Below are positions 42,524-57,780 of a DNA stretch of 60,308 nt, piece by piece. How positions within the stretch are numbered: position 1 is the stretch's first letter; each line of letters starts with the position of its first letter. The notes under the pieces were generated by a model. The model searched no databases and had not been told where the DNA came from. It worked only from the letters and a program-made list of their open reading frames with translations. The DNA is from an uncultured Flavobacteriaceae bacterium (lineage in GTDB: Bacteria; Bacteroidota; Bacteroidia; Flavobacteriales; Flavobacteriaceae), in NCBI GenBank assembly GCA_905480425.1, contig CAJQQG010000026.1, positions 1 to 60,308 of the forward strand, given 5' to 3'. Position numbers and translations under genes: made by a program.

Positions 42524-42572
42524 AAACCACACGCATATTGAGAGGAGTAGGCTTTAGGATTTATTATATTTG
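42524..42572 (+). repeat. Promoter-borne repeat, copy H (degenerate)
   Basis: Begins AAACCACACGCATAT and ends TTTATTATATTTG; the middle is diverged from the family core. It ends with a perfect -7 box TATATTTG (42565-42572), 17 bases before the lipoprotein ATG at 42590. Confidence 0.5.
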
Positions 42573-42589
42573 ATTAAAATAATGAATTA

Positions 42590-42811
42590 ATGAAAAAAGC
42601 ACTCATATTTTTAATTCTACTAGTCTCCTTTTGTTCAAAAGAAACAGGATGTGTTGAAATCAAAGACAAAGGATCAGGAGGAGGCAAATATTTTTTCTAT
42701 TGGAATGAAAAACTAAAAAATGTTAAAAATCAAATAGTTATTGTGTCTGGTAGTGTTTCCGAAGAAGTTTATAATTCATTTGAAATAGGAGATGAATATT
42801 GTACAGATTAA
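42590..42811 (+). CDS. Small cysteine-containing lipoprotein (73 aa)
   Basis: The signal peptide has its lipobox Cys in LLVSFC, followed by SKETGCVEIKDKGSGGGKYF. It shares CSKETGC and FFYW with the frameshifted gene at 57797, so the two are paralogues about 15 kb apart, each served by a copy of the same repeat. The other conserved Cys (GC and EYC) could pair. No function is known. Confidence 0.55.
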   Translation: MKKALIFLILLVSFCSKETGCVEIKDKGSGGGKYFFYWNEKLKNVKNQIVIVSGSVSEEVYNSFEIGDEYCTD

Positions 42812-42855
42812 ACACCCATTATATGTTTTAAACCAGCGAAAGTTTATTATCACTA

Positions 42856-43877
42856 ATGACTAAATCATAAAGTATATCAAAAAAGAAATTCCAATAGATG
42901 TTGTCATAACATGGGTAAATGGAAGTGATCCTGATCTAAAACAAAAGAGAGCTTTTTTTTTAGAAAAAGAAAAATCATATTCTTCCCATAGTTCGTTAAA
43001 TACTCGTTTCGAATCCAAAAATGAAATTGAATATTGTGTTGGCTCAATCTTAAAATTCGCTCCTTTTGTAAGAAATATTTTTATTATAACTGATGGTCAA
43101 GCACCAAAATTCTCAGATATTTTTAAAAATCATTTTTCAAAAGGGATTAATTCCATTAAAATAATTGATCATAAAGAAATATTTAAAGGGAACGAATTTT
43201 GTTTACCTAGTTTTAATAGTCGATCAATTGAAAGTTTACTTTGGAAAATAAATTCTCTTTCTGATAATTTTGTTTATTTTAATGATGATTTTTTCCTGAT
43301 TCGTCCTGTGAAACAGAAAGATTGGTTTGTAAACGGAACTCCTGTTTTAAGGGGTAAATGGAAATCCAAACCAAAGATTAAATTAGCCTATAATACGATT
43401 ATAAAATACATCAAAAAAACTATCTTAAACAGCAAGAATTTTTTGCTTCGTCCAAATTATTACATCGGACAGTGGAACGCCGCAAATAAGCTTGGATATA
43501 TTAAAAAATATTTTCGAGTAGAACACACTCCTCACCCAATAAACAAGAAGACATTAAAACTTTTTTTTAGTAATAATGATAAACTATTAAAAAAAAATAT
43601 TTCTTATCGTTTTAGAAATTATGATCAATTTAATACAGTTTCACTTGCAAATAATTTAGAGCTTCAAAATCAAAATATTCATATATCCTCGATAGATGGA
43701 GTTTATATATATCCTGTAAATAGACACAAAAAATATGTTGAAAAAAAATTGAATCTTTGTATTTCAAATGAAAACATAAAATTTCTTTGTATTCAAAGTT
43801 TAGATAGTGCGAAGAAAAAAGATGAAAAAGCTATTAAAGTTTGGTTAAAAAGCATCATTTTTAAAAAGACATTTTAA
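42856..43877 (+). pseudogene. Stealth-family polysaccharide phosphotransferase, frameshifted at codon 3-4
   Basis: A protein of about 338 residues with all Stealth hallmarks: CR1 (DVVITWVNGSDPD), CR2 (RFESKNEIEYCVGSILKFAP, IITDGQAP, PSFNSRSIE, FVYFNDDFF), CR3 (EHTPHP) and a CR4-like end. Stealth enzymes transfer hexose-1-phosphate in capsule synthesis (e.g. SacB, LcbA). From 42864 to the stop the frame has no ATG, GTG or TTG until GTG 43308, which would lose CR1-CR2. A start ATG at 42856 (MTK) is in another frame; one additional A after ACTAAA would join them as MTKIIKYIKKE. No capsule genes are adjacent. Confidence 0.75.
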
Positions 43878-43932
43878 ACACTATGATTGCTATTACCTTT
43901 ATAAAATTTCTGTAAACCCTCTCTAATTAAGT

Positions 43933-44121
43933 TTAATATTCTATTAGATAATTTACCACACCAAAAACGCAAAAACAAATAGTTAGAATTACATTAATAA
44001 ATCCCACTCTCCGCGAAAAAAATTTATCTGTCTTTTTCCCAATCCATTCGATGGATGGTTTAGCACCATTAGTAATAACAAAAAAACCGAATAATGTTAA
44101 AGGATAGGCTAATAGTTTCAT
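43933..44121 (-). CDS. Small membrane protein (62 aa)
   Basis: Two hydrophobic segments (about residues 3-19 and 41-58) around a basic middle (GKKTDKFFSRRVGF). It ends 55 bases from the Stealth gene on the opposite strand. No family recognised. Confidence 0.4.
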   Translation of the reverse strand: MKLLAYPLTLFGFFVITNGAKPSIEWIGKKTDKFFSRRVGFINVILTICFCVFGVVNYLIEY

Positions 44122-44312
44122 AATTAAATATAAAGACTATTTATCAATAATCAATATTTACCTATTTAACACACATTTTTAAATTATATAAATCTTATAT
44201 GTAATCAAAAAAATTGATGTCTGTCATGTTATGTATGTCACGATAATTCTGACTAACTTTAGTTATTATTTTTTAAATTATCAGTAATATTAATACAACG
44301 ATTATTAGTTAT

Positions 44313-44531
44313 ATGGATTATTACCAAAAGAGAAAAAGAGAAATTGTTGAGGCAATATTATCAACCATAAGCACTATTAGAGATAATGAGTATAGCACTA
44401 TTGAAAATGCTTTTGACAGATTTGAGCTAGAAGGAGCAAAACATGTAACCAACATTGGACAAAACACTTTTAATGAAGTAATTATCGACGCTCTTGATGA
44501 AGTAAAAACAACAATTGAAAAGAGTTTATGA
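44313..44531 (+). CDS. Small helical protein (72 aa)
   Basis: Mostly charged helices, no signal peptide; MDYYQKRKREIVEAILSTIS then a helix ending VKTTIEKSL. It resembles no named family. It stands alone, with about 190 bases of AT-rich DNA before it and no repeat copy. Confidence 0.45.
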   Translation: MDYYQKRKREIVEAILSTISTIRDNEYSTIENAFDRFELEGAKHVTNIGQNTFNEVIIDALDEVKTTIEKSL

Positions 44532-44626
44532 AACCAAACAATTTTTAAAATTTGGTATTAGTTCTAAAATAATTTAATGCAATAGAATAAAAAGATTTAT
44601 TTGCTTCTTAAAGTCAGATTAGTTAA

Positions 44627-44755
44627 TTAAATACGACCTAAAATATAACCAACCAAAAAAGCAATTAGAACCAAAACCCTCAGTTCAACTCCTAGACTTT
44701 TGGCAATCGAATCTACTATTTTGAGTATTGCAATTTTTATTTTTTCTAGATCCAT
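44627..44755 (-). CDS. 42-residue single-helix protein
   Basis: MDLEKIKIAILKIVDSIAKS then GVELRVLVLIAFLVGYILGR: an amphipathic N-terminal helix and a C-terminal hydrophobic helix with a Gly-x-x-x-Gly-type end. The frame is clean with ATG 44755 and TAA. It may be a regulatory membrane peptide; its function is unknown. Confidence 0.45.
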   Translation of the reverse strand: MDLEKIKIAILKIVDSIAKSLGVELRVLVLIAFLVGYILGRI

Positions 44756-45067
44756 ATTATTAGTTTTTTATCCATTAAGTTTAAATTATATATCTTTTTA
44801 GTTATCTATTTTTAGGCTCTTATTTAAGAAGATATTTAATTATTAATGTTGTTATTACATCCATAAAAACGAAAACAGAGCTAATCGAAACACACCAAAT
44901 TTCTCAAGTAACCAAATGTCACTAAATTTATTTTCATCGCGTTATCTTTTTCAGATAATTAAATGTAATGATACTTATTTATAATTCAAAAACTATATGT
45001 CCAATTGAAGAATTTTGATGCACAAAAGAGATGATATGCCAAAAGTTTAAATGAATATTGGTATTTT
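44756..45067. other. 312-base gap; holds one inverted core of the repeat family
   Basis: No coding frame is visible. At 45030-45040 the plus strand reads GATGATATGCC, an exact reverse complement of the GGCATATCATC core, but no gene lies immediately downstream of it in that orientation. It may mark a repeat copy whose gene was lost. The rest is AT-rich with no hairpin of note. Confidence 0.35.
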
Positions 45068-45601
45068 TTAATACGGAAATTCTCCAACAAAATTACCCTG
45101 AGGACTATATCTCGCCACAACATATGTCTTGCCTGAATCTGAAACAGCCATTGCCATTCCAACTTCGGTAGTGCTATTCCAAACCATTTGAGTATAATGC
45201 CCTATTTCGTAAAAATCATTTTCTCCTGATAGAATTGGGGAATAGGTGTATAATTCAATTTCTTCATACCAAAGTTGAGACCCATTTCTAGCAGATGTTG
45301 TTGAATCTGTCGCAGTTGTATAATATAAATTTTCTCCTTGTCCTGTGCGCGAGTCGTTTTCAGAATGATACATTCTATCTTCTTTGGCCATTTGTAGCGC
45401 CCATTTTGACGCATCTTTAGACAGTGAAGATGACCACTTAAGGCTTGCAACACCAACCTCTGAGCGCGCATTATTATGAATGATCAATGCCTGGTCTATA
45501 TCTTCCTGTGAAAGTCCGTAAAGATTTATGGTCAATTTATCAGAATCTTTAGAGCAGTTAGTCAAAAAAAGAAGTAAAAGAGGGATAATAATTCCTTTCA
45601 T
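45068..45601 (-). CDS. CAP-domain (SCP/PR-1) lipoprotein
   Basis: A 177-residue lipoprotein with a lipobox at LLFLTNC (about residues 10-16), then the CAP fold: HNNARSEVGVASLKW with its conserved His, HSENDSR with His-Ser-Glu, GENLYY and GHYTQMVWNSTTEVGMA (the CAP-1 signature). Bacterial CAP proteins (YkwD-like) are secreted proteins of unclear activity; some bind sterols or act as proteases. It stands alone; the last strand ends in GEFPY. The signal and domain make the call firm. Confidence 0.85.
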   Translation of the reverse strand: MKGIIIPLLLLFLTNCSKDSDKLTINLYGLSQEDIDQALIIHNNARSEVGVASLKWSSSLSKDASKWALQMAKEDRMYHSENDSRTGQGENLYYTTATDSTTSARNGSQLWYEEIELYTYSPILSGENDFYEIGHYTQMVWNSTTEVGMAMAVSDSGKTYVVARYSPQGNFVGEFPY

Positions 45602-45763
45602 TTTATTTGTGCTTAATGATGCCTAAATATAACAAATCCTAATCAAACAATAATTTATCTTTAGTAAGAACGGGAATATTTTATCACTAATCATTCGGTA
45701 ACTTTTAATCTACTTCAAAGGCGTCAATAATTATAAGGTTTATATAATTATTATATTTAGACT

Positions 45764-46387
45764 ATGAAGAAACTAGTTATATTATTAATATTTATTCCAC
45801 TTCTTTTTTTTGGGCAAAAAAATAACAAAAAAGCAGAACTATTAAAAACTCGTTTTATGGAACTGAACATTAAAGAAAATATAGCTCTTTCAGAAATGTT
45901 AAAATCTAACAGGATAAAATCAAATGATTATAAAGTTAGACTCGAAAAACTTAAGAGTCAATTTTTTAAAACAAAATTTATATTAAATAAAATTCCACCA
46001 AACATTCAAAATCTAAATAAAATTTTATTAGACCCTGAAATAAGGTTTAAAAACAATGAATTCCAATTTAAAGGAAAAAACAGGTGGCTTTCTGATGTTG
46101 AATTTATTTCATTTTTAATTAAAAACAAGGAAGACAATTTTTTAAATAAAAATGACTCTAAGCAAATTATAAGTAATTTACATAACTCTAATACTAAGTA
46201 TTTTTTTAAAAATAAAAACTACTTAATTTTTGAAAAACCAATTTCAACATCAAGAGTTATTCATAGAATTCAAGGAGGATATTCTTTTAGGATTTTAGAC
46301 AGAAGTAATTCCGAGTATTTTTTTATTCAAACTGAAAAAAGAGAATTAGGGTATGTTTTAAAAAATAAACTGCCTGAAATAAATTAA
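45764..46387 (+). CDS. Secreted hypothetical protein (207 aa)
   Basis: The signal peptide (MKKLVILLIFIPLLFFGQ) is followed by a lysine-rich, helical domain and a C-terminal beta-rich part (IQGGYSFRILDRSNSEYFFI). No family recognised. A -7-like TATATTTA lies about 10 bases upstream of ATG. No copy of the core repeat was seen here. Confidence 0.5.
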   Translation: MKKLVILLIFIPLLFFGQKNNKKAELLKTRFMELNIKENIALSEMLKSNRIKSNDYKVRLEKLKSQFFKTKFILNKIPPNIQNLNKILLDPEIRFKNNEFQFKGKNRWLSDVEFISFLIKNKEDNFLNKNDSKQIISNLHNSNTKYFFKNKNYLIFEKPISTSRVIHRIQGGYSFRILDRSNSEYFFIQTEKRELGYVLKNKLPEIN

Positions 46388-46688
46388 ATCTTACGATATT
46401 AAATACTAATAACCTAACGGCACCTTTTATTAAGAATGTTTTAGGCTTTTTAGTTTTTGAGGATTATTAGTAACTCTTAGAAATTGACATTTATTTCTTT
46501 TGATTTAATAAAAATCCTGCTCTTTTCTGGAGGCCTGAAATTTAAAACACAAATTAAACTATATGCATGTAAACTTCAGTAAGTTTATGAAAAATACTGC
46601 TTTTAAAATTCTCTATATGGTTATGTTTATCTACGAATATTGACTTAAGAGGTTGTAGCTTTACAATTAATCATTAATAATAAACAAC
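46388..46688. other. 301-base gap with a degenerate repeat copy (K)
   Basis: No gene is apparent. A weak copy of the repeat family is present at 46561-46590: a shared CTTCAGTAAGTT within a diverged ATGCATGTAAA background, about 100 bases before the ATG at 46689. This distance is larger than for the other copies, so its role is uncertain. Confidence 0.3.
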
Positions 46689-46913
46689 ATGGATAGCGAA
46701 ACCTTTCATAAAATCAAAAAGTTTAAAATTCAGATAGATTTAAAAGTTAAAAGCGGAAAATATTCTCATTATGTTTTAGAGCAATTTGATACCATTGGAG
46801 AATTATTCGGATTAAGCGAAAACTTATTGATAGATGATGCTAATGAAGAGTATTATGATGAATTGAGTATATATTTAATTAATAGTTTAGTTAAAGAAGT
46901 TTATAAAAAGTAG
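46689..46913 (+). CDS. Small acidic helical protein (74 aa)
   Basis: 74 residues, no signal peptide: MDSETFHKIKKFKIQIDLKV, then an acidic stretch (DDANEEYYDEL) and a basic end. Not recognised. It resembles in size and composition the 72-residue protein at 44313, but no alignment was possible by eye. Confidence 0.4.
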   Translation: MDSETFHKIKKFKIQIDLKVKSGKYSHYVLEQFDTIGELFGLSENLLIDDANEEYYDELSIYLINSLVKEVYKK

Positions 46914-47045
46914 AAAAATACACAGAGTTATGCTATTGTGTATTTTAATTGCATCTAATAGTTTTTCCTAATAACTCTTTTACTTAATATCAATAAGAGT
47001 AAAAGATAACTATATGAAAAAAGCATTTCCTTTAAAAGTAAGCAT

Positions 47046-47240
47046 TTAAGGCGCTCTATTTTTCACATCTTTATCCGGGATTCTACCTTGATTTCCTATC
47101 CCGTCAAAATCACTTGAATCATATGAATTCATATTTTCTTTACGTTGAATTTTGTGTTGTTTTCTGATTATTGTCAAAAGAAAATATACGTAGACAATAA
47201 ATATTATTACTCCTACGATAAACATAATTTGGTTTTTCAT
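47046..47240 (-). CDS. Small single-helix membrane protein (64 aa)
   Basis: An N-terminal transmembrane helix (about residues 5-25) and a polar tail with SSDFDGIGNQGRIPDKD. The ATG overlaps the stop of the upstream gene (ATGA), so it is co-translated with its 61-residue neighbour. Not recognised. Confidence 0.45.
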   Translation of the reverse strand: MKNQIMFIVGVIIFIVYVYFLLTIIRKQHKIQRKENMNSYDSSDFDGIGNQGRIPDKDVKNRAP

Positions 47241-47422
47241 AGTCCGGAATTTTTATCATCACTTCTTCTTTGCCTTATCACAAATGCAAAGGCAAGAATA
47301 GTTACTGGCCATAGACCTACATATATGCCTTCAAGCTGATTGCCCGAAAACCACAAAAATATTGAATATAAAAAACTTAAAAAAGCAAGTATTACAGGGT
47401 AGTATTTTTCTACAAAAATCAT
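47237..47422 (-). CDS. Small two-helix membrane protein (61 aa)
   Basis: Two hydrophobic segments (about residues 8-24 and 33-50) and a basic C-terminal tail (RQRRSDDKNSG). First gene of a two-gene operon with the 64-residue membrane protein through a four-base overlap. Not recognised. Confidence 0.45.
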   Translation of the reverse strand: MIFVEKYYPVILAFLSFLYSIFLWFSGNQLEGIYVGLWPVTILAFAFVIRQRRSDDKNSGL

Positions 47423-47464
47423 TTTTATTGAAAGTTAATAAAATTAATTATAATAAATGTTTTT

Positions 47465-47511
47465 AACCACGGGGATATTATCTTAAGTAAGTTTTAGAAT
47501 TTGTTATATTT
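47465..47511 (+). repeat. Promoter-borne repeat, copy A
   Basis: Reads AACCACGGGGATATTATC then TTAAGTAAGTTTTAGAATTT and ends in GTTATATTTATATG. It lies 19 bases before the ATG of the DUF3784 gene (47530), in the same orientation. Confidence 0.6.
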
Positions 47512-47529
47512 ATATGTTATTAATTTACT

Positions 47530-47856
47530 ATGATGAATTCTCCTTTTATTGCAGTTTTAATTGCAGACATAATTTTTATATCAACTGCTTTAGGCTTAAA
47601 TAAAGAAAACGCTAAATATCTTTTGAGCGGTTATAATGCTATGTCAAAAAAGGAAAGAGAAAATTTTGATATTGTAAACTATCTTACACTTTTAAAAAAG
47701 TTTTTTTTAATACTTGCAGGATCTTCAACTATTGTATTTACTCTTTTAATTAATTTACTAAACGCAAAAATCGCGGTGATAAGTTATTCTTCGTATTTAA
47801 TTATTATGCTTATTTGGTTTATATTTAAGGGGAATAAATTTAAAATAAAACAGTAA
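47530..47856 (+). CDS. DUF3784-like membrane protein
   Basis: A 108-residue protein with three hydrophobic segments and the motif YLLSGYNAMSKKERENFDI between the first two, which is the hallmark of DUF3784 (a small Gram-positive/Bacteroidota membrane family of unknown function). The first two codons are both ATG, so the start may be 47533. It is preceded by repeat copy A. Confidence 0.65.
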   Translation: MMNSPFIAVLIADIIFISTALGLNKENAKYLLSGYNAMSKKERENFDIVNYLTLLKKFFLILAGSSTIVFTLLINLLNAKIAVISYSSYLIIMLIWFIFKGNKFKIKQ

Positions 47857-47915
47857 TAATTTTTATTTAAACTTCAGGTGTAAAATATTCAGCAATTCCA
47901 TTTTATGTAATAAAA

Positions 47916-48653
47916 TCATTTTCTTGAGTTAAGCTTTGCTAGTAACCTTAATATTTCAAGATATAACCATATAAGAGTAACTAATAAACCGAATGCCCCA
48001 TACCATTCCATATATTTTGGTGCCCCCTTTTCAGCCCCCTCCTCAATAAAATCAAAATCTAAAACTAGATTTAGAGCGGCTATTATTACAACAACAATAC
48101 TAAACCCAATACTTATTGGAGAAGCCTTATTTACACTCATTACACCCAGACCTGAGCCAAAAAAGCCCATAAAAAAGTTTATTAAGTAGACAATAGCAAT
48201 TCCTCCTGTTGCAGCAAATATTCCAAGTTTAAAATTTTCAGTTGCTTTTATATAGCCTGATCGATATGCGATCAATAACGAAACTAAGATCCCCACTGTT
48301 AAAAGTATAGCGTTTGTTACAATACCATCATATAAAGAATTGTACATATAAGATATTCCACCCAACATACCACCTTCTAATACTGCATAAATAGGAACAG
48401 TTATTGGAGCCCACTCTTTTTTATAAACAGTGATAATAGCTAATATGAATCCCCCTATACCACATCCAATTAGCAAGACTAGATTAATGGTGTTGAAAGT
48501 TAAATAACCCGCACCAACTAGAAGAAAAAGGCTTATTGCAGTTTTATTTACAGTCCCTTCAATAGTCATTTTATTATCACTGGAAATGGTGTTATCGAAA
48601 GTTTTTTTTGAAAGAACAGGATTACCTGACCTTAAAGATAGGTGTCTACTCAT
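47916..48653 (-). CDS. Bax inhibitor-1/YccA-like membrane protein
   Basis: A 245-residue polytopic protein with about seven transmembrane helices. The N-terminal soluble segment (RSGNPVLSKKTFDN) and the C-terminal DFDFIEEGAEKGAPKYMEWY region, with the conserved Asp-Glu pair, are typical of the bacterial YccA-like BI-1 group, which are pH-sensitive calcium leak channels or FtsH-interacting proteins. It is a well conserved, housekeeping-like gene inside the accessory region. Confidence 0.8.
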   Translation of the reverse strand: MSRHLSLRSGNPVLSKKTFDNTISSDNKMTIEGTVNKTAISLFLLVGAGYLTFNTINLVLLIGCGIGGFILAIITVYKKEWAPITVPIYAVLEGGMLGGISYMYNSLYDGIVTNAILLTVGILVSLLIAYRSGYIKATENFKLGIFAATGGIAIVYLINFFMGFFGSGLGVMSVNKASPISIGFSIVVVIIAALNLVLDFDFIEEGAEKGAPKYMEWYGAFGLLVTLIWLYLEILRLLAKLNSRK

Positions 48654-48813
48654 AATAAGTTTTTAATAGTAAAATTCAAATAACAAAGATATTAGGTTGA
48701 AATAAATTAGACTCTAAATTATTGTATTAAGATTTATACGGTATTTGTGACGAATTAATACCCTTTATAATGCCTAAAAACAAAAAAGTAGCTTCAATAT
48801 CAGCCTAAGTTTA

Positions 48814-48859
48814 TGGTTTCCAAAGCATATAAGATGATACTGTTTTATTTGTAACTTTA
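48814..48859 (+). repeat. Promoter-borne repeat, copy L (degenerate)
   Basis: Contains CCAAAGCATATAAGATGAT and TACTGTTTTATTTG, resembling copy E at its start and end, five bases before the ATG at 48864. The identity is low, and the assignment rests on its position and on those two blocks. Confidence 0.3.
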
Positions 48860-48965: not shown

Positions 48966-49006
48966 CTTAAAAATCACATAAGAGTTTTAAAGTTTCTTTT
49001 TCTTTT

Positions 49007-49050
49007 AAACCACAGCCATATAATCTTAAGTAAGTCATATGATTTGGGAT
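49007..49050 (+). repeat. Promoter-borne repeat, copy B
   Basis: Starts AAACCACAGCCATATAATC, continues TTAAGTAAGTCATATGATTT and is followed by GGGATTG. It lies about 50 bases before the ATG at 49102, and the remaining leader carries the second conserved element (AATCATAAACCAATTACAATG). Confidence 0.6.
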
Positions 49051-49101
49051 TGCATAGGAATATGTTTAAGTTTGAATGTTATTAATCATAAACCAATTAC
49101 A

Positions 49102-49779
49102 ATGAAAAAAATAATATTAATATTAATTTCTACAATGTCATTTGGACAGACTAGATATTGGACTTCCTATAATGTTACTATAGAGCCTGAAAATATTGAA
49201 GCGGTATACAATCTTTTTGATGATTATTTTAAATCGAATCCCACTTCAGAAGATGTTGATGCCTATTTATATGAAAATCATTTTAGAGATTATGGCAATA
49301 ACTATACGCATTCATTTATTTGGGCTGGGAGTCTTGAAGGAATGGGCGCACAATATGCACCAAAAGAGAATAATGCTTGGGAATTGTTAATAACAAAAGC
49401 AAGTCAATTAATCAAAGAAACGCATAGTGCTTCAATGGGTAATACTCTTGTAAATGTTGGTGAAAATAAACCAATTCAGAGATATTTTTATTTAGATGTT
49501 GAAGACCCTGAAAAATACTTAATAGCTTTTAAAAAATCTCTAAAATTCAGATCTAAAGATCGTCAAACATTATTAGGCGGTTTTTCTGCTGGTCTTTCTC
49601 CAGATGGTGAATCCCATTGGGTTATTGTTGGGTTTGATGATATGAAATCTGCTATGGATCCTGGAGCTTTCAGAAGAAGCAATCCAGAAGCACAAAAGTC
49701 TTGGGACGAATACCGAAAAAATAGAGGTAATTCTCGCTTGGTAAGATCGGGATTACGTCTTTTAATGGGAAGCTGGTAA
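49102..49779 (+). CDS. Secreted ABM-like protein B
   Basis: A 225-residue secreted protein (signal peptide to about MSFGQ). Its pattern of two strand-helix halves with Trp-rich strands (TRYWTSYNVTIEP, FIWAGSLEG, SHWVIVGFDD) is like the protein at 41307. ATG 49102 replaces an upstream open frame start, because the 21 codons before it are the repeat and leader region. It ends in RLLMGSW. Function unknown; the fold is inferred. Confidence 0.55.
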   Translation: MKKIILILISTMSFGQTRYWTSYNVTIEPENIEAVYNLFDDYFKSNPTSEDVDAYLYENHFRDYGNNYTHSFIWAGSLEGMGAQYAPKENNAWELLITKASQLIKETHSASMGNTLVNVGENKPIQRYFYLDVEDPEKYLIAFKKSLKFRSKDRQTLLGGFSAGLSPDGESHWVIVGFDDMKSAMDPGAFRRSNPEAQKSWDEYRKNRGNSRLVRSGLRLLMGSW

Positions 49780-49874
49780 GTAAAAATTAATTTTATGTTT
49801 TTTTAGTCCCCCTAGCAGAAGAATTAACATTAATACATTCAACATTCTAAACAAATACATTTATTGAGTAATCC

Positions 49875-49904
49875 AAACCTCACTAATTAGATTTAGTGAC
49901 GTTT
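49875..49904 (+). terminator. Hairpin AAACCTCACTAA / TTAGTGACGTTT with T-rich tail
   Basis: A 12-bp stem with one C-C mismatch around loop TTAGAT, followed by GTTTTATTTCTTTT. It lies about 100 bases after the ABM-like B gene and fits an intrinsic terminator. A weaker relative (ACTAA...TTAGTGACG) occurs near 57604, after the gene at 57133. Confidence 0.5.
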
Positions 49905-50055
49905 TATTTCTTTTAACTTTTTTTATTTTAAGTAGGCCAATTAATAATATAATTGACTACTTTTAATTAATCTAAACACAAACTACTGTATTGCAGTTAT
50001 TTACGTAATAATATTTGTTGCTTTCATAAATTACATTAGTTTAGAATCAGTAAAA

Positions 50056-50496
50056 ATGTATAGGAGTAAATGTGCTTTAGCAAATTTTCTTGATCACTTT
50101 GGTGATAAATGGTCTTTATTAATAATCAGAGATATATTTATTGAAAAAACAACTTTCAGTGATTTTATCAAAAGTGCCGAAGGAATTGCTTCTAATATTT
50201 TAACAAATAGATTAAAAAGTTTGATAGAGCATGGATTAATAGATTATAAAATTAATCCAGAGAATAAAAAAATCAAATGGTATTATCTAACTGATAAGGC
50301 AGTTGATGTCTATCCTGTAATTATTGAAATGGTTAAATGGAGTGATAAAAAATTAAATAAAGAATTTGGTCCAATAACTAACCAGTGGATAAAAGAAAAC
50401 AGTATGGGTTCAACTAATTTTGTTTCTAACGAAAAAATTTTAAAATATAAAAAGTTTAGAAATGAAATTTTTCTTAAATGTTTAAATCAAGAATGA
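50056..50496 (+). CDS. HxlR family transcriptional regulator
   Basis: A 146-residue winged helix-turn-helix protein: CALANFLDHFGDKWSLLIIR with its conserved Cys, then the recognition region ASNILTNRLKSLIEHGLIDY and the wing KIKWYYLTDK. HxlR members respond to aldehydes, quinones or other electrophiles through an N-terminal Cys, and here Cys6 is in the expected place. It is followed by a DoxX gene 199 bases downstream, a common partner of such regulators. It is the only transcription factor in the accessory region. Confidence 0.85.
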   Translation: MYRSKCALANFLDHFGDKWSLLIIRDIFIEKTTFSDFIKSAEGIASNILTNRLKSLIEHGLIDYKINPENKKIKWYYLTDKAVDVYPVIIEMVKWSDKKLNKEFGPITNQWIKENSMGSTNFVSNEKILKYKKFRNEIFLKCLNQE

Positions 50497-50649
50497 TTTA
50501 AACATTTAGACTATTTTTCCCAATATACTTTCTATCAAATATATCTTTAATTATGAATTTTTATAAAAAAATTACTATGATTATTGGTTTAGAAGAGATT
50601 TAAGATTGTATGATAAAGAAGGAATTTTTAATTCTTGAACAATGAACTT

Positions 50650-50690
50650 ATAGGCATATCATCTTCAGTATTTTCAGAGAATTTGCAATT
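50650..50690 (+). repeat. Promoter-borne repeat, copy G
   Basis: Contains ATAGGCATATCATCTTCAGT, nearly the consensus, then TTTTCAGAGAATTTGCAATT. It falls inside the first codons of a longer open frame and so argues that translation begins at ATG 50695, just after it. Confidence 0.6.
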
Positions 50691-51221: not shown

Positions 51222-51968
51222 ATGAAAAAAATACTTTTATTTATTTGTATCGTTATGTTTTCAAATTCATATGGTCAAAGAAATTCAGATGCAGAATATT
51301 GGAATACATTTCATTACAAAGCAAAATCAGGAATGGAAAATAAATTTATCCAGTCGGCAGCAAAAAAGACAAAAAAATATAATGCTGAACAAGACAACTT
51401 TATTATTACCTATAAGATAAGTACAGGTCAGAATGCCGGAGTATTTGAAAGAATAATGCCTTTTCAAACTTCAGAAGGATATGACAGAGATACTTCAGCA
51501 GAACTTAAATATTGGGCTGATAATGTTATGCCGTTTGCAGAATCAGTAGGAGGTCAGCAAATTTGGGAAAGAGAAAAATGGGCTGATGTGAACGTGGATG
51601 TAACGACTCCCCCTTATAAACATTTGATTAAAAATATTTATGTTGTAAAACAGACCCATAATGAATATTTTGGGAGATGGACTCAAAGAATAGGTAAGGT
51701 TATGGCAAAAAGACGACCAGATAGTAGTAGAATTATGTTAAGCCTTGTTTCAGGTGGGCGAAGTAATACTTTTGTTTCATATGTAGGATTTAATACATTT
51801 AAACATTCCAATCCAGATTTTGATTCTTCTTGGGAAGAAGACTACAATGAAATGTTTGGCTGGGAAACATTTAAAGCAGATCAAAAAGCATTTCGGGAGT
51901 CATTAGAGATGATTATTGGTCACCAAAGGGAATCTCTTGAATTAGTTGAGGAGCTTCTCCCAAATTAA
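51222..51968 (+). CDS. Secreted ABM-like protein C
   Basis: A 248-residue secreted protein (signal peptide to NSYGQR). Its halves have Trp/Phe-rich strands (AEYWNTFHYKAKSG, ELKYWADNVMPF, YVGFNTFKHSN) and long amphipathic helices, like proteins A and B. The upstream 43 codons of the open frame are not coding: they cover repeat copy I and the common leader. It ends just before a terminator. Function unknown. Confidence 0.55.
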   Translation: MKKILLFICIVMFSNSYGQRNSDAEYWNTFHYKAKSGMENKFIQSAAKKTKKYNAEQDNFIITYKISTGQNAGVFERIMPFQTSEGYDRDTSAELKYWADNVMPFAESVGGQQIWEREKWADVNVDVTTPPYKHLIKNIYVVKQTHNEYFGRWTQRIGKVMAKRRPDSSRIMLSLVSGGRSNTFVSYVGFNTFKHSNPDFDSSWEEDYNEMFGWETFKADQKAFRESLEMIIGHQRESLELVEELLPN

Positions 51969-51979
51969 AAATATAAATT

Positions 51980-52000
51980 AACCCTCCCAATTGGAGGGTT
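51980..52000 (+). terminator. Strong hairpin AACCCTCC / GGAGGGTT
   Basis: A perfect 8-bp GC-rich stem with loop CAATT, 11 bases after the ABM-like C stop, followed by TACTTTT. It likely terminates that gene and the convergent gene at 52048. Confidence 0.7.
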
Positions 52001-52047
52001 TACTTTTAGATCAAAGCAACTTCATTTTAATTAAGTCCTGTTTTTAG

Positions 52048-52518
52048 TTATTTTCTGACATATCCTCCAATGGATTCTCTATATTCAATCACAAAGCCAT
52101 TTTCAGAACAAAACTTTTTAAACTCATCAGATGCTTTTCCTAAAACAATGAATGATTCAATCTCAAAAAACTTGAAAAATTTTTCAAAATTTGGGCCACT
52201 AATAAAATCTTCGCCGTGTTTAATTCCATCTAAACTATTATTATATTTCTCGATCAATGTTACCTTATTCCCATCATCTGAAATATAGTATCCGTATATA
52301 GTTGAAGGCTCTCTTTCTAAGATAAAATCAGATAAATATTGAGTAAAATCTTCAACTTCAGCTTTTAAATTATTTTTTGTGCTCATCTCTAAAATGAATA
52401 TTAGCTCATTTGAATCAGAATTGTTTAAAACATTTGAATCTTTGTGAATTATATTTTTGCAGCTTAAAATTGCAAATAAAAGAGCTAATAAAATTGAGAT
52501 CGATTTAAGTTGTCGCAT
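52048..52518 (-). CDS. ABM-like lipoprotein
   Basis: A 156-residue lipoprotein (lipobox LFAILSC). It contains an antibiotic-biosynthesis-monooxygenase/quinol monooxygenase-like domain: FILEREPSTIYGYYISDDGN followed by a strand and helix ending KFFKFFEIESFIVLGKAS, the order of ABM proteins. A short helix and strand follow. The start ATG 52518 is preceded by AACCATAAATTAATTACA, the same leader as the other secreted genes. A conserved His (IKHGED) is where the ABM family places one. Confidence 0.6.
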   Translation of the reverse strand: MRQLKSISILLALLFAILSCKNIIHKDSNVLNNSDSNELIFILEMSTKNNLKAEVEDFTQYLSDFILEREPSTIYGYYISDDGNKVTLIEKYNNSLDGIKHGEDFISGPNFEKFFKFFEIESFIVLGKASDEFKKFCSENGFVIEYRESIGGYVRK

Positions 52519-52557
52519 TGTAATTAATTTATGGTTAGAAGATTTAAACTTTTAGAG

Positions 52558-52610
52558 ATTCTTATAAAAAACTAAATCCCTATCCTTACGAAAGATGATA
52601 TACTCATGAA
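52558..52610 (-). repeat. Promoter-borne repeat, copy N (minus strand)
   Basis: On the minus strand it reads CATGAGTATATCATCTTTCG and TAAGGATAGGGATTTAG, matching the family with about ten differences, and precedes the ABM-like lipoprotein gene (52518) in the same orientation. Confidence 0.5.
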
Positions 52611-52804
52611 TTTTTTTCTTTGTGTTATTGAAGTATGTACTAAATCCTAAGGGGCTTAGTGCGATTATAAAAATAATAATAATATTCGTGTAATTTAAAT
52701 ATTATGGCATACCTTTTAATAATTCAGATGAAAAAATAGAAACATATCAGCTTGTTAAATTTTGATTTATAATAAAACGGCCCTTAAGCTTATTATAATT
52801 GATT

Positions 52805-53653
52805 TTAATGTTTGTATGAGCCGTCGGGAAGTATAGTTGGTAAATTATATATTGGATTAGTCAATAATTCAAATATTTCATTATCTGTGTTTTCTAATAA
52901 ATCCGCAGTATTTAATTTCCATTCTTTACCAATTTCATTTAATCGATTTTCTTGAGCGCCCAGAATAGATGTTAATGCCCAGTATAAATATTCAATAGTT
53001 TGGCAAGTTTCATAATCACAAGTTGAATCGTAATAACTGAACCAAGCATTTGCAGGATAAATAGAAGGGATTTTAAAAAATCGTCCTCCACGAGCGACAT
53101 CCATTGCTTTTGACAATGCTGATTTTTTATTTTTACCAAAAGTTCCAGGGTAAGCATATGAATGTCCAGCATTGTTGATTAAATGAAGTACTTCCTCTAA
53201 AGTTGCATCGAATCTTCCAGTTTTGCCATTAGAAACAAAAGAAGGATTGGTTTCGTCATTTCCTAAATCTTGACCAATTCTCACCGAAGGGGGCCTTATA
53301 TTTAAATCCTTTTCTTTCTTCCACATAACTAAAAAGGCCTTATTCTCTAGCATTTTATTCAATACCAATTGATTGTCTATTAAACCATCCTCATCATTAT
53401 CAAGATATTGAGCCATTACGTTAGCAGCGTGTAATAGTTTAGCGTCTTCTACTTCTCTAACGGCATAAAGGTCAATACCAAAAACAATAACCTTTTTGTT
53501 AAAACTGGATAAACCAATGTCATTATTTGGGACAATATTGAAGTTTGGATCTTTTCCCACATCGATTGGCCCACCCTTGAGATTTAACGTTTTACAAGAA
53601 ATAAAGGTCAAGTAGATTAAGAACAACAATCTATTTATTTTAATGCAATCCAT
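52805..53653 (-). CDS. Hypothetical lipoprotein with EF-hand-like loop and EEVLH motif
   Basis: A 282-residue lipoprotein (lipobox LTFISC). It contains a calcium-binding-like DNDEDGLIDN loop near residue 85, an EEVLHLINNAGH segment that might chelate metal, and CDYETCQTIEYLYW. No recognised family by eye. The Cys pair suggests a disulfide. It stands alone with ample spacers. The metal idea is speculative. Confidence 0.5.
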   Translation of the reverse strand: MDCIKINRLLFLIYLTFISCKTLNLKGGPIDVGKDPNFNIVPNNDIGLSSFNKKVIVFGIDLYAVREVEDAKLLHAANVMAQYLDNDEDGLIDNQLVLNKMLENKAFLVMWKKEKDLNIRPPSVRIGQDLGNDETNPSFVSNGKTGRFDATLEEVLHLINNAGHSYAYPGTFGKNKKSALSKAMDVARGGRFFKIPSIYPANAWFSYYDSTCDYETCQTIEYLYWALTSILGAQENRLNEIGKEWKLNTADLLENTDNEIFELLTNPIYNLPTILPDGSYKH

Positions 53654-53732
53654 AAAATCACAAGATATAAATCTTTAAAAAAGAATAACACTTAAACTCA
53701 CTAAAATGAATCAAAAATAAATGACCCTTAAA

Positions 53733-54146
53733 CTATTTTGCCTTCTCGAATTTAAATGACTTAATAAACACATACAAGAAAAACAGAAAGAAGAGCCAAT
53801 CATTTATACCATATAAAGCGTAGAAAATTCCTGCCATTTGGTCTTTATTAAACAATGCAAAGAGATCATTATTAGAAATCCAATTGATCCAATTTAATCC
53901 ATAAAGAAATTTTTCGATTGCAAACACTCCAACAAGCCAATTCAATTCCTCATATTTTTGAGAGACAGATAAAAACACTAAGCCCCAAACAACAATCATT
54001 AGCAAACCAAAATTAGATATTACAACTGGGTCAGCAGCAGTGATAGCATCATTTGTAAAAAATCTTGAAAAAATCAAAACACCTCCAATATTCATTATTC
54101 CCGAAAGAACAAATCCTTTTGTAATTACTCCTTTACTGATTTTCAT
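53733..54146 (-). CDS. Four-helix membrane protein (137 aa)
   Basis: Hydrophobic segments at about residues 9-30, 42-60, 70-88 and 104-126, with short loops, MNIGGVLIFSRFF and GLNWINWIS between them. Not recognised by family. Its promoter region holds TTATATTAG about 30 bases upstream of the ATG, similar to the -7-like end of repeat copy E. It faces the terminator-repeat block at 54181-54260. Confidence 0.5.
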   Translation of the reverse strand: MKISKGVITKGFVLSGIMNIGGVLIFSRFFTNDAITAADPVVISNFGLLMIVVWGLVFLSVSQKYEELNWLVGVFAIEKFLYGLNWINWISNNDLFALFNKDQMAGIFYALYGINDWLFFLFFLYVFIKSFKFEKAK

Positions 54147-54180
54147 AAAACATACTTAGGTTAAAGCTAATATAAGAAAA

Positions 54181-54210
54181 CCCTCTAATTATATTTAGGG
54201 GCGTTTTTTT
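54181..54210 (+). terminator. Imperfect hairpin with T-run; no plus-strand gene upstream
   Basis: CCCT...AGGGG stem with one bulge followed by GCGTTTTTTT. It looks like a plus-strand intrinsic terminator, but the nearest upstream gene is on the minus strand. It could serve the minus-strand message weakly or be left from a lost gene. Repeat copy C begins immediately after it. Confidence 0.4.
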
Positions 54211-54260
54211 AACCACAGGCATATCATCTTCAGTAAGTTCTAAAGCGATAAATTTATTTC
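54211..54260 (+). repeat. Promoter-borne repeat, copy C
   Basis: AACCACAGGCATATCATC followed by TTCAGTAAGTTCTAAAG: identical to copies E and F over the core. It directly follows the T-run of a terminator, and is about 115 bases before the GNAT-like gene, farther than other copies. A later TATATTTA at about 54280 may be the -7 box. Confidence 0.65.
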
Positions 54261-54373
54261 GAACAATAAACTTTTTGCTATATTTAAAGAACTAAAAGCT
54301 ACCATAATAAAAAAAGTACATTTGATCTAGGAAATATATTTTATTCACTCTCATAAGTTTCACTTTTTTCATA

Positions 54374-54931
54374 TTGAATATCACAGAAATAAAAATAATA
54401 AGAACATTTAATCAGCTTAAAGAAGTAAAAAAGCTTCAGTCAAAAAACTTAAAAAGCAATCTTTCTTCAACGACCAAATTTAGTGATGGCTTTCTAACTG
54501 CGAGCTATTCAATTTCATTTTTAAAAAGTATAACAAAAAAATCTCCTTCAATTATTGCTGAGGCGGAAGGAGAAATTGTTGGCTACCTATTAGCATCAAC
54601 AAAAGATTCGACAAAAGGAGATGAGTTTTTAAAAAATTTAATTATGAAAATTAATCGAAAAGTTTATAAGTCAAAACAGCTCTCTAAACTTGATTTTATT
54701 ATTGTAGCTCAACTTTGTATAGCAGCAACTCATCGAGCTCAGGGCATAGTTAAAAAAATGTACACACTTTTTAAAAATAAATATTCATCTATATATCCAT
54801 TTTGTTTAACGGTTGTTGATATAGAAAATAAGAGATCAGTTAGAGCTCACCTAAATGAAGGATTTAAGATAATAGATTCAATTAAAATGGGAAATAGTGA
54901 AGCTTTTATAATCATTTGGGATTGGCATTAA
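54374..54931 (+). CDS. GNAT-like N-acetyltransferase
   Basis: A 185-residue protein with a GNAT-like core: IIAEAEGEIVGYLLAS (beta 2-4), VAQLCIAATHRAQGIVKKMY (the acetyl-CoA loop; the usual RxxGxG is present as HRAQGIV), and VVDIENKRSVRAHLNEGFKI (the C-terminal helix-strand). The substrate is unknown. No ATG is present; translation starts at TTG 54374 or further inside. The spacing from repeat copy C is long. Confidence 0.6.
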   Translation: MNITEIKIIRTFNQLKEVKKLQSKNLKSNLSSTTKFSDGFLTASYSISFLKSITKKSPSIIAEAEGEIVGYLLASTKDSTKGDEFLKNLIMKINRKVYKSKQLSKLDFIIVAQLCIAATHRAQGIVKKMYTLFKNKYSSIYPFCLTVVDIENKRSVRAHLNEGFKIIDSIKMGNSEAFIIIWDWH

Positions 54932-54947
54932 AAAAGTATTTTCTTTT

Positions 54948-54990
54948 AAACTAGAGGCATATCATCTCCATTAGGTTTAGTGCATTTTGA
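54948..54990 (+). repeat. Promoter-borne repeat, copy D
   Basis: AAACTAGAGGCATATCATC then TCCATTAGGTTTAGTGC, the second half diverged, ending in TTTTGAATATTATTAACC. It is followed directly by the shared leader and the ATG at 55017. Confidence 0.55.
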
Positions 54991-55016
54991 ATATTATTAA
55001 CCATAAATCAATTAAA

Positions 55017-55555
55017 ATGAGAACCAAATTTTTTTTATTCTTTTCCCACTTTTAATTCATAGCCAACAAACGCAACAGGTTAGAAACTATGGAGATGTAG
55101 AACAAATAAATATAGAAACTAAAAAACATGATAATAGCTGGAAGTTAAACATTATTGGTTCAAAATTTTATCACGATGAATTCCTGCAAACAATTGTTAA
55201 CGGAAAAGAAATTAAGGTCAAGTATGACGCACTAGATGATTTTATGCGCTCGCAGGTTGGACCTAATCTTTTTTCTTTTCCTGAAAATGAAATTCTACTT
55301 TTAGATAACAAGGAACCTTGGATTACATATAATAATAGTTGGTTTAGAATATTAGTTAGGAGGAATGATTTCACATATTTGTTAAAACCAATTGCTAAAT
55401 ATTATCCTGCAAAAAAATCAGATGGGTTTTCAGAAAACACACCTCACGAATTTAAGATTATAAATAAATTTTATTCTTTGAAAGATGATAACATCATTTT
55501 GTTAAAGAGAAAGGAAATAAAAAAACTGGGATTAAAAAAAATGTTTAAAAACTAA
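55017..55555 (+). pseudogene. Secreted protein with T8 frameshift in the signal peptide
   Basis: ATG 55017 reads MRTKFFLFFSHF then stops. The long frame (ending 55555) continues as FILFPLLIHSQQTQQVRNYG, giving about 179 residues: signal peptide, then a domain including NSWKLNIIGSKFYHDEFLQT and LLDNKEPWITYNN. The two join if the eight T at 55029-55036 were nine: the tract is one short. This may be a sequencing error or a phase-variable locus. No family recognised. Leader and repeat copy D precede it. Confidence 0.7.
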
Positions 55556-55633
55556 AGTTAGTAATAGACGTCATTAAGTTAGATATTAATCAACGTATTA
55601 AGATGTTTCAAACAGCCTTACAATAAACTTTAC

Positions 55634-55686
55634 CAAGAATAAAGAAAAGCCACTAATGAAGTAAGTGAAAACTTGCCTTTGTTTGT
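55634..55686 (+). repeat. Mobile-element tail repeat, copy 1
   Basis: About 53 bases alike at roughly 85 percent to 60168-60220. Both carry a coding-like ATNEV.E.LPLFV peptide. This copy has no intact gene upstream and is probably a fragment left from an element like that at 59.7-60.2 kb. Confidence 0.55.
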
Positions 55687-55698
55687 GTGATAGATTTA

Positions 55699-56144
55699 TC
55701 AATCACTTAATATCCCAAATTGACTAAAATGATATGAAGTGTGAAAAGCGATTAATCTTTTAAATAAATTAGATGATATTTTTCCATAGAGTTGATGTTG
55801 AATTATTTTAGTATCAATATTTTGAACTTTGTTTAAATTTTCAATTAATCTTTTTTTCTCATTATTAAAATCAATTGATAAAGGGTATGATTTAAAAACT
55901 TTTAGTGTTGTTGAATTTTTTTTAAATTTCGTAATATCAAATTCTATATATTTTAAATATTGTAAAAAAAAGCTCTAAATAAAATTCTGTTTACGAAATA
56001 TATTTTTTTGATTCCAAAAGATACTTCTATGTATTTATTACAATGGTATAGCATTTGGCTAGAATTCATAATTCCCCAATTCGGATTGCTATCTTCATTG
56101 AGTTTATTTAAATAAATTTTAATTTTAGTAGAATTTAATTCCAT
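55699..56144 (-). pseudogene. DUF1569 (DinB-like) family protein with A8/T8 frameshift
   Basis: From ATG 56144 the frame reads MELNSTKIKIYLNKLNEDSN then PNWGIMNSSQMLYHCNKYIE, the metal-site-bearing opening of DUF1569, and ends at a TAA near 55953. Shifting by one base at the eight-T run (55971-55964 on minus) restores the rest: LQYLKYIEFDITK, IIQHQLYGKIS and a final HTSYHFSQFG, the expected second histidine cluster. A nine-T tract would restore about 148 residues, normal for the family. A sequencing error or phase variation are possible. Confidence 0.7.
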
Positions 56145-56186
56145 TTTCAAAGATAAAAAGTTCTGATTAAAAAGTATATTTACCCG

Positions 56187-56235
56187 AAACCAAAGGCATA
56201 TCATCTTCAGTAAGTTTTGGGATTTGCTATATTAG
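56187..56235 (+). repeat. Promoter-borne repeat, copy E
   Basis: AAACCAAAGGCATATCATC then TTCAGTAAGTTTTGGGATTT and GCTATATTAG. It differs from copy F at only a few bases. It ends 22 bases before the 33-residue gene. Confidence 0.7.
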
Positions 56236-56257
56236 CTGGAACTATTAAACAGACATT

Positions 56258-56359
56258 ATGAATAAACTGATAGCCTTTTGCGCAAAGAATAGTTTGCCAG
56301 GTAAGATTATTTTAGTTTGCGTTATTATCAATGTTATATCATTGACAATTAACTTTTAA
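56258..56359 (+). CDS. 33-residue hydrophobic peptide
   Basis: MNKLIAFCAKNSLPGKIILV followed by CVIINVISLTINF: two short hydrophobic stretches and a few basic residues, ATG placed just after repeat copy E. It is probably co-transcribed with the 151-residue gene nine bases on. Not recognised. Confidence 0.4.
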   Translation: MNKLIAFCAKNSLPGKIILVCVIINVISLTINF

Positions 56360-56366
56360 TATAATT

Positions 56367-56822
56367 ATGAAAATAAAGATATTAGCATATACTTTCTTAG
56401 GTGGAAAAAAAGAATACTTAAAAGAATTTAAAGATAAAGCAGATTTAGATAAACATATTAGTTTCATTACCAATGAAGATAGTTTATTTAGAGATGTTCA
56501 ATATACTTATAAGGATAAAGATTATAGAGTATTTAATAAGAAAAGAAATGATAGTGATTATGTATCTAAATACAGAAAAAATCAAGCAGATAATAGAACT
56601 AAATTATTCAGGAAACATTCTATAATTACTAGTATGAATGTAACAGATAATATGCGAAATAAATATAAAGAGTTTTTAAAGACAGCCATATTAAGTGAAA
56701 AAGACATTAAGTCTGCGAAGTTAATACTAAACGCAACCTCCCTAAAGGAGAGCCATATAGGCATATTAAACGCTTTAGTAGATAAGAGCAGAAGATTTAA
56801 GAGCAAAAAAAAGAAAAAATAA
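56367..56822 (+). CDS. Highly basic hypothetical protein (151 aa)
   Basis: Lys/Arg-rich (ending in a run of lysines), no signal peptide: MKIKILAYTFLGGKKEYLKE, then a charged middle and helical end (LNATSLKESHIGILNALVDK). Suggests a nucleic-acid or ribosome-associated protein. Unrecognised. Reads in the same direction as the 33-residue gene before it. Confidence 0.5.
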   Translation: MKIKILAYTFLGGKKEYLKEFKDKADLDKHISFITNEDSLFRDVQYTYKDKDYRVFNKKRNDSDYVSKYRKNQADNRTKLFRKHSIITSMNVTDNMRNKYKEFLKTAILSEKDIKSAKLILNATSLKESHIGILNALVDKSRRFKSKKKKK

Positions 56823-56899
56823 GATTTATGAAACCAGGAACAATATGATTTCGCTTTGATTTTACTTTGTTTCCCTCAAGAGTCTTCTTCTTTTAATCC

Positions 56900-57034
56900 T
56901 CAATTTATAGATTCACCATCTTCTTTGTTAAGTCTTTCATTGTGATCGTAATTCCATCCATTAAGTTATTTAATACCTTGAATGGATACACCATCTCCAA
57001 TAATTTGATCCCAAATATTTTTATCATCAACATT
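56900..57034 (-). pseudogene. Possible degenerate gene remnant in the 310-base gap
   Basis: The gap 56823-57132 has no intact gene. On the minus strand a frame reads NVDDKNIWDQIIGDGVSIQG, then a stop, then LNGWNYDHNERLNKEDGES in the same frame. The amino-acid make-up looks protein-like, so it may be a decayed gene, but it is short and could be chance. Confidence 0.2.
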
Positions 57035-57132
57035 TATTTTTTATATCCTTAAAGGACTGAAATAACTTTTAAAAGTATATATTCCAATAAGAGCAATAGG
57101 GTAGTATTTTACCAATATTATATATTTGACAT

Positions 57133-57534
57133 ATGAAATTTAACTTACGCATTTTTATAACATTTATTTTTATAATATTTTTAGCTCAAGGGCACTCTCA
57201 AGATTCAATTAATCAGTACGAGGCTCTTCGCCTTAAAAATGAACTAGGATTTCAAAAGTCTTATCGAGTATTAAAAACTACATTTAAAAGTTTAGAAGGG
57301 TTTCAAACTTTTTATCCTGGAACTAAAATAACCCTTGAAAAAATACTCCGATACCACTTTTATACGGCAATTCATGTTAATCAAAAAGAGAATAAATTGT
57401 TTTCAATGGATTTAACGGAATTCGAATTAAAAAACAATACTTCAGAAGAAGAAATAACAAAAGAAACAGTTACACTAATTGGAGATATGTTTTTCGGCTC
57501 AAATGAACTTAAAGTAATATCTATTAAAAATTAA
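57133..57534 (+). CDS. Secreted hypothetical protein (133 aa)
   Basis: Signal peptide ending near GHSQ, then a mixed domain: DSINQYEALRLKNELGFQKS and KITLEKILRYHFYTAIHVNQ. Not recognised. It lies about 165 bases before the strong terminator at 57700. Compositionally like neighbouring accessory genes. Confidence 0.5.
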   Translation: MKFNLRIFITFIFIIFLAQGHSQDSINQYEALRLKNELGFQKSYRVLKTTFKSLEGFQTFYPGTKITLEKILRYHFYTAIHVNQKENKLFSMDLTEFELKNNTSEEEITKETVTLIGDMFFGSNELKVISIKN

Positions 57535-57699
57535 CCAAAAACACAATGATATTTCTGTTGATTCTCTTCACAGCAATAAATAATATATTTTCAAGCATAA
57601 TTTTACTAATTGACTTTAGTGACGTTTTCTTTAAAACTAATCTTAATAAAATTGTCTTAATACTATAAGCCTTTCATTTTGGTTTATGGTTAAGTAGAG

Positions 57700-57731
57700 A
57701 ACCCTTTTGTTAATTCAGAAGGGTTTTTTTT
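57700..57731 (+). terminator. Strong intrinsic terminator
   Basis: Stem AACCCTTTTG / CAGAAGGGTT (10 bp with one G-T pair) with loop TTAATT and an eight-T tail. It ends directly where repeat copy F begins. Confidence 0.75.
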
Positions 57732-57780
57732 AAACCTCAGGCATATCATCTTCAGTAAGTTCTGGGATTTGTTATATTTG
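57732..57780 (+). repeat. Promoter-borne repeat, copy F (closest to consensus)
   Basis: AAACCTCAGGCATATCATC then TTCAGTAAGTTCTGGGATTT and a final GTTATATTTG that contains a perfect TAnnTTTG (57773-57780), 16 bases before the ATG at 57797. It is the best copy of the family and shows the promoter nature of its 3' end. Confidence 0.75.

What the first reader, a model, noticed from the sequence alone, without database searches (positions are those of the whole stretch)
42524..57780. Family of promoter-borne repeats in front of unrelated accessory genes
At least eight clear and about four weak copies of a roughly 45-base element are found between 42.5 and 57.8 kb (42524, 47465, 49007, 50650, 51125, 54211, 54948, 56187, 57732, and 52610 on minus; weak at 46561 and 48814). 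They share AAACCAC or AGGCATATCATC, then CTTCAGTAAGTT, GGGATTT and often a final TATATTTG, which is a perfect -7 box. Each stands just upstream of a start codon and in the gene's own orientation, on both strands, while the genes are unrelated (DUF3784, DoxX, ABM-like, GNAT, lipoproteins). None was seen in the core half of the window. This looks like a spreading or recombining promoter module that places many small genes in one regulon, and I know of no named element like it.
Basis: seen in the sequence. Interest (0 to 1): 0.85.

Follow-up and report, generated by a model that had tools for sequence, protein, structure and literature searches.

The report
Integron-like gene cassettes with integrase-tail sites
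The repeated element is not a shared promoter but the joining site of small mobile gene cassettes in marine flavobacteria, and the same site forms the very end of a DNA-recombining enzyme's gene, so these bacteria appear to run an integron-like gene-swapping system built from unusual parts.

Summary
The repeats are real but not primarily promoters. Eight strong copies lie at 46.5-57.8 kb, all on the plus strand, none in the core half. The conserved block YTAAAYCAYMGGCATATCMTCTTCAKTAAGTTC is, read backwards, the last codons and stop of a tyrosine-recombinase gene (..EL[TN]E[DE]DMPxx-stop). Full-length copies of that integrase end such arrays in sister species; homologues occur in other Flavobacteriales. 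DNA right of the site is of several kinds, only some promoter-like. Among 237 sites, 66 pairs share a left neighbour, 63 a right neighbour, 1 both; identity switches at the core A(G/T)TAAGTTC (controls 92, 93). At sites not beside an integrase body, the tail's stop position reads TAA, TAG or TGA in 175 of 232. Best reading: integron-like cassette arrays whose insertion site lies inside the integrase's 3' end, each cassette bringing the enzyme a new tail. It is not a true integron: IntI-model, attC-motif and attC-fold tests failed. No reaction was tested, and in this 85%-complete genome only a broken remnant of the integrase was found.

The parts
46554..46590 (+). attachment-site copy (23.8 bits); core at its right part
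   Evidence: weight matrix; also present at the matching place in G004 (L063 near 3198)
47462..47498 (+). attachment-site copy (25.3 bits), followed by a TATATTTA-containing arm and the DUF3784 gene
   Evidence: gene PF12650 E 5.4e-13
47530..48653 (.). cassette content: DUF3784 gene (47530-47856 +) and Bax-inhibitor-1-like gene (47916-48653 -); block 46946-48746 is moved relative to 49006-49803 in G004
49005..49041 (+). attachment-site copy (22.5 bits); homology to G004 starts here while the left neighbours differ
49102..50496 (+). cassette content: gene 49102-49779 (no Pfam match at E 1) and HxlR-like regulator 50056-50496
50643..50679 (+). attachment-site copy (32.1 bits)
54208..54244 (+). 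attachment-site copy (49.9 bits) directly after a terminator-like hairpin and T run; tail frame has no stop at the expected codon
54374..54931 (+). cassette gene, GNAT-like only below the Pfam cut-off (16.1 against 20.7 bits); cassette 54211-55023 is 89% identical to G004 L061:11646-12468
54946..54982 (+). attachment-site copy (33.5 bits) with intact tail frame KPNGDDMPLV-stop
56185..56221 (+). attachment-site copy (48.9 bits)
57730..57766 (+). attachment-site copy (55.5 bits) after a terminator-like hairpin; intact tail frame ELTEDDMPEV-stop; followed by TATATTTG
55643..55686 (+). P3 arm remnant: 3' end of a small gene whose stop abuts the core in other copies
60176..60219 (+). P3 arm followed by a core-like TTAAGTAAGTTC and a P2-type arm, at the contig end (whole 37-mer score only -14.4)

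Best explanation
The element is the attachment site of a cassette-exchange system that works like an integron but uses a different tyrosine recombinase. Shown by sequence: the conserved block is the last codons and stop of the integrase gene; stretches with accessory genes (median 1.06 kb between same-strand sites) lie between blocks; the neighbours of a site are shuffled between species and loci, the switch falling at the core A(G/T)TAAGTTC; where an array is visible beside a full-length integrase it points at the integrase gene, which is antisense with its 3' end on the last core. Inferred: the integrase exchanges strands in that core; a free cassette enters at the core inside the integrase gene, so the incoming cassette's right end becomes the integrase's new C-terminal tail, and the old tail becomes a cassette boundary. 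Many cassettes bring their own promoter-like left arm. Arrays without an integrase nearby, such as those in this window, would be frozen or served in trans.
For: Block joined to integrase bodies. Architecture visible in G021, G050 and G017; in G046 and G015 the contig ends at the site. Neighbour shuffling: 66 left-sharing and 63 right-sharing pairs, 1 sharing both; collinearity kept in 21 of 450 at sites against 72 of 302 at intergenic and 1042 of 2062 at grid control positions; 28 of 173 homology ends at sites in both loci against a random mean of 0.16%. Stop-codon signature 175 of 232. Assembly branch: C21 continues into C34 or C52 through the same 141 bp holding the site. Different cassette order at one shared place in G004.
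Against: No intact integrase in the own genome, only a remnant (genome 85% complete); 22 of 38 genus genomes show no match, and G004 with at least 41 copies is among them. No circular cassette or empty site was observed and nothing was assayed. Tail frame intact at only 25 of 41 own-genome sites and 3 of 8 window sites. Some intervals hold several genes or antisense genes. Synonymous sites of the integrase 3' end are not clearly more conserved than elsewhere across genera. Related sites and genomes are not independent samples.
Confidence: 0.75

Rival explanations
1. Ordinary homologous recombination between dispersed repeats shuffles the genes; the repeats are scars of old, decayed integrase genes and are no longer active sites.
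For: Arrays without an integrase and with decayed sites are common; degenerate integrase remnants occur in several genomes; some arms (P1 with leader, P3) extend the repeat and could serve as homology.
Against: The switch of identity falls at a core of about nine bases rather than spreading over the repeat; the shared block is only about 35 bases; the stop-codon signature persists away from integrases.
Confidence: 0.12
2. The host's XerC/XerD recombinases move the cassettes, as in Acinetobacter dif modules, and the integrase tail is only where the site came from.
For: The own genome has two full-length Phage_integrase proteins and no intact P0001-type integrase.
Against: The site's sequence changes with the integrase between genera and stays its 3' end; a Xer site would not need a stop-codon signature.
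Confidence: 0.08
3. One reading: a mobile promoter element that binds many genes into one regulon.
For: A TAnnTT(T/A)G box within 110 bp at 37% of 81 sites against 12% of random positions.
Against: The conserved part lies outside the promoter and encodes an integrase tail; right arms are of several types.
Confidence: 0.04

Closest known systems
Integrons and CALINs (IntI, attI, attC)
   Same: Arrays of small accessory-gene cassettes between repeated recombination sites, a tyrosine recombinase gene at one end, and arrays without an integrase nearby. True integrons are reported from Bacteroidota (passages of PMC8618304).
   Different: The recombinase scores 28 bits against the IntI cut-off of 265; no RYYYAAC/GTTRRRY pair at 266 sites and no folding signal in 90 sampled; the insertion site lies inside the 3' end of the integrase gene and the array points at it (in standard integrons the array leads away from intI; recalled).
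Myxococcus phage Mx8 integrase
   Same: Attachment site within the integrase coding sequence; integration creates a new 3' end of the gene without inactivating it and changes its specificity (passages of PMC6070905).
   Different: A single prophage, not cassette arrays; no relation of the proteins was tested.
Archaeal 'suicidal' (SSV-type) integrases
   Same: Recombination site within the integrase's own gene (passages of PMC8371274).
   Different: There integration splits the gene; here only the last codons are exchanged. The review calls own-gene-disrupting recombinases exclusive to Archaea; here the gene is not disrupted.
Acinetobacter dif modules
   Same: Small gene modules between short recombination sites, shuffled among replicons (abstracts in the listing).
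   Different: Served by XerC/XerD at dif sites according to those abstracts; here the site belongs to a dedicated integrase gene. Xer action here was not excluded.

Membership tests
Integron | IntI-type integrase | tested here: not met
   TIGR02249 28.3 bits against cut-off 265 for P0001
Integron | attC sites: RYYYAAC/GTTRRRY core pair and a folding strand | tested here: not met
   0 of 266 sites with the pair; mean folding z between -0.26 and 0.17 in 90 sampled sites
Integron | Array of cassettes bounded by the sites, with neighbours shuffled | tested here: met
Integron | Integrase-mediated attC x attI recombination | not testable with these tools
   needs an assay
Site-inside-integrase-gene recombinases (Mx8, SSV type) | Recombination site within the integrase's own coding sequence | tested here: met
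   sequence overlap in full-length genes; recombination at it is inferred from shuffling
Archaeal suicidal integrases | Integration splits the gene into two inactive parts | tested here: not met
   genes joined to a site read full length, 346-369 aa, in the 21 ORFs listed
dif modules | Sites recombined by XerC/XerD | not tested
   two Phage_integrase proteins exist in the own genome; no test of Xer binding was made
Promoter-type repeat / regulon | One conserved promoter in the copies | tested here: not met
   several right-arm types; box at 37% of 81 sites

The most novel reading that the evidence does not exclude
A second, independently built integron: its insertion site is inside the integrase gene, and every cassette carries a functional C-terminal tail with stop codon for the enzyme, so each capture rewrites the enzyme's end and may retune its activity, as integration does in phage Mx8.
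Probability: 0.5. Interest if true: 0.9.

Novelty: new variant of a known kind. Interest (0 to 1): 0.8.

Why it matters
Gene-cassette capture is known mainly from integrons and dif modules. A dedicated system with a different recombinase, with homologues in five Flavobacteriales families sampled and at least 36 copies in each of two marine genomes, could explain part of their accessory-gene turnover. Cassettes that re-supply the enzyme's own tail would give a directly testable link between gene capture and control of the recombinase.

Tried and rejected
Integron: rejected as membership. Known RNA family: 0 Rfam matches at the gathering score over 42.0-60.3 kb. Viral origin: no integrase relative and no exact site pattern in viral contigs; in the phage and plasmid collections only 2 and 1 records, at about 26% identity over part of the protein. 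One regulon: see the first-reader verdict. The structure model of the integrase was too weak (mean pLDDT 64.7, pTM 0.39), so no fold search was run. DNA-level constraint on the integrase 3' end across genera: not shown; codon identity among same-residue pairs is 0.58-0.61 in the last two windows, inside the 0.38-0.67 range of the other windows. The 48814 copy is rejected, and 42524, 51125 and 52610 are demoted. Literature: searches listed no paper on this system; titles, abstracts and term counts were seen, passages only of PMC9122927, PMC8618304, PMC8371274 and PMC6070905. That library lacks most subscription papers and bioRxiv, so absence there is weak. Classification caveat: a number of the 53 'other' sites look like P3 or integrase-arm variants; one search used looser limits and so counts 34, not 29, integrase-arm sites. 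One search counted pairs of sites with at least 350 bp of flank on both sides; one search compared each site with all held loci and therefore finds 21 collinear cases, not 1.
Full report
OBSERVATION. The window contains 8 strong copies of a 37-base block between 46.5 and 57.8 kb, all plus strand and all above the best of 20 simulated windows (exact-pattern count). The window is contig C26 of a 1.85 Mb draft genome (79 contigs, 85% complete) with 36 copies at up to 3 mismatches and 0 of the reversed control. Of 25 genus genomes searched (own included) 21 have a copy; 0 of 15 genomes of other families do at this stringency. An exact degenerate pattern hit 102 stretches of named genomes; the 80 listed are labelled marine-type Flavobacteriaceae, Flavobacteriales, Cryomorphaceae or Bacteroidetes, some 'MS024-2A' and one Ca. 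Arcticimaribacter. That this genus is the NS5 marine group is my inference from those names and the listing. The closed Arcticimaribacter genome has only 2 copies.

WHAT IT IS. Read backwards, the block is the 3' end of a tyrosine-recombinase gene (..GLEIPELTEDDMPVV-stop), seen where the block is joined to the body of such a gene. The integrase P0001 (357 aa) matches Phage_integrase (E 1e-10), phrog_1 integrase (E 1.6e-28) and, as a six-sequence profile, a XerC-like solved structure (4a8e, E 1.4e-9); it stays far below the XerC, XerD and IntI cut-offs. In the genus 16 of 38 genomes have a match, 5 of them over nearly the full length; the own genome has only a remnant with two stops, and G004, richest in sites, has none. 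Homologues occur in 18 of 397 genomes and 14 of 237 genera of the family at E 1e-20, and in 19 of 395 genomes and 8 of 109 genera of an order-wide sample at E 1e-30, spread over four further families. Of 15 loci fetched around family homologues, 11 show a version of the site at up to 6 mismatches, mostly at the integrase's end; G240, G412, G367 and, from another family, G702 show further copies in the same stretch.

ARCHITECTURE. Where contigs reach far enough (G021, G050, G017) the array points at the integrase, which is antisense to it with its 3' end on the last core; G046 and G015 contigs end at that site. In G017 a weak site (5 mismatches) also lies on the other side of the integrase. In G021 and G007, arrays with different genes stand a few kb from a shared 2.1-kb homologous stretch with a membrane-protease-like gene (name recalled). 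Same-strand neighbouring sites lie a median 1.06 kb apart (n=51).

SHUFFLING. Parts of the window's cassettes reappear elsewhere in G004: 54211-55023, 54987-55556, 56195-56833, 57049-57637 and 49006-49803 at 87-92% identity; for four of these five one end of the homology lies at a site in both genomes, for 57049-57637 neither does. At one shared chromosomal place the order differs: window blocks 43353-46926, 46946-48746, 49006-49803 stand in G004 as first, third, second, and the third begins there at a site with a different left neighbour. In the own assembly contig C21 overlaps by exactly 141 bp, site included, with both C34 and C52. Of 190 homology ends 49 lie within 60 bp of a site (random mean 4.4%), and of 173 ends 28 lie at sites in both loci (random mean 0.16%). 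Across 237 sites, 66 pairs share the left flank, 63 the right and 1 both; excess identity over random pairs holds on the left to about +16 and rises on the right from about +23 of the 22-mer coordinates, which brackets the core. Collinearity is kept in 21 of 450 cases at sites, 72 of 302 at intergenic controls and 1042 of 2062 on a control grid.

THE TAIL. The conserved block begins at the integrase's stop codon. At 232 sites not classed as integrase arms the stop position reads TAA 129, TAG 31 or TGA 15 (175), while near non-stop triplets are rare (plus-strand ATA 6, GTA 2, TTG 4; TTT 10 is the commonest); the stop falls in the exact frame at 165 of 232, and at 30 of 34 integrase-arm sites. 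In the own genome 25 of 41 and in the window 3 of 8 are intact. I infer that cassettes are, or recently were, selected to provide a valid tail, because insertion at the core replaces it. Common descent of the sites limits the strength of these counts.

RIGHT ARMS. To the right of the core the arms are of several kinds. P3 is the 3' end of a small gene found whole in L057, L206 and L100; I call it small-terminase-like from memory, and a similar L066 protein matched no family. Another arm is the integrase body. Promoter-like arms are only part.

COMPARISON AND NOVELTY. It works like an integron but fails its two molecular definitions. A site inside the integrase gene is known from phage Mx8 (passages) and archaeal suicidal integrases (passages). 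I found no description of this combination in the held library (searches under Tried and rejected); the NS5 paper PMC9122927 was only searched for terms, and its main text has no 'integrase' or 'integron'. Confidence: 0.75 for the system as described, 0.5 for the bolder tail-supply reading.

Noticed in passing
window 55643-55686 and 60176-60219; L057 near 13783; L206 near 12715; L100 near 4: A recurrent 3' fragment (QYTLPRMKQATNEVSEDLPLFV) of a small terminase-like gene (label recalled) stands at many sites, sometimes between two cores; it may be a relic of the mobile element that founded the sites.
   Followed up: partly
L066 6805-8679: Beside the G021 array: a 469-aa protein without any significant family match (P0002) and a 110-aa protein without a match, possibly parts of a small mobile element.
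   Followed up: partly
window 47916-48653 and L066 4149-4898: A Bax-inhibitor-1-like gene lies antisense within site-bounded stretches in two species, about 79% identical as DNA.
   Followed up: partly
window 55018-55555: The gene after the 54946 site starts and continues in different reading frames; probably a broken cassette gene.
   Followed up: no
window 41301-41338 (minus strand): The same leader (ATTATTAACCATAAATCAATTAAAATG) as at site-borne genes precedes a gene with no recognisable site, 97% identical to 54986-55023.
   Followed up: no
L229 17920-19029, L233 17508-18584: Two integrases of other genera read past the usual stop into longer, unlike tails, as expected if their tails were exchanged.
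   Followed up: no
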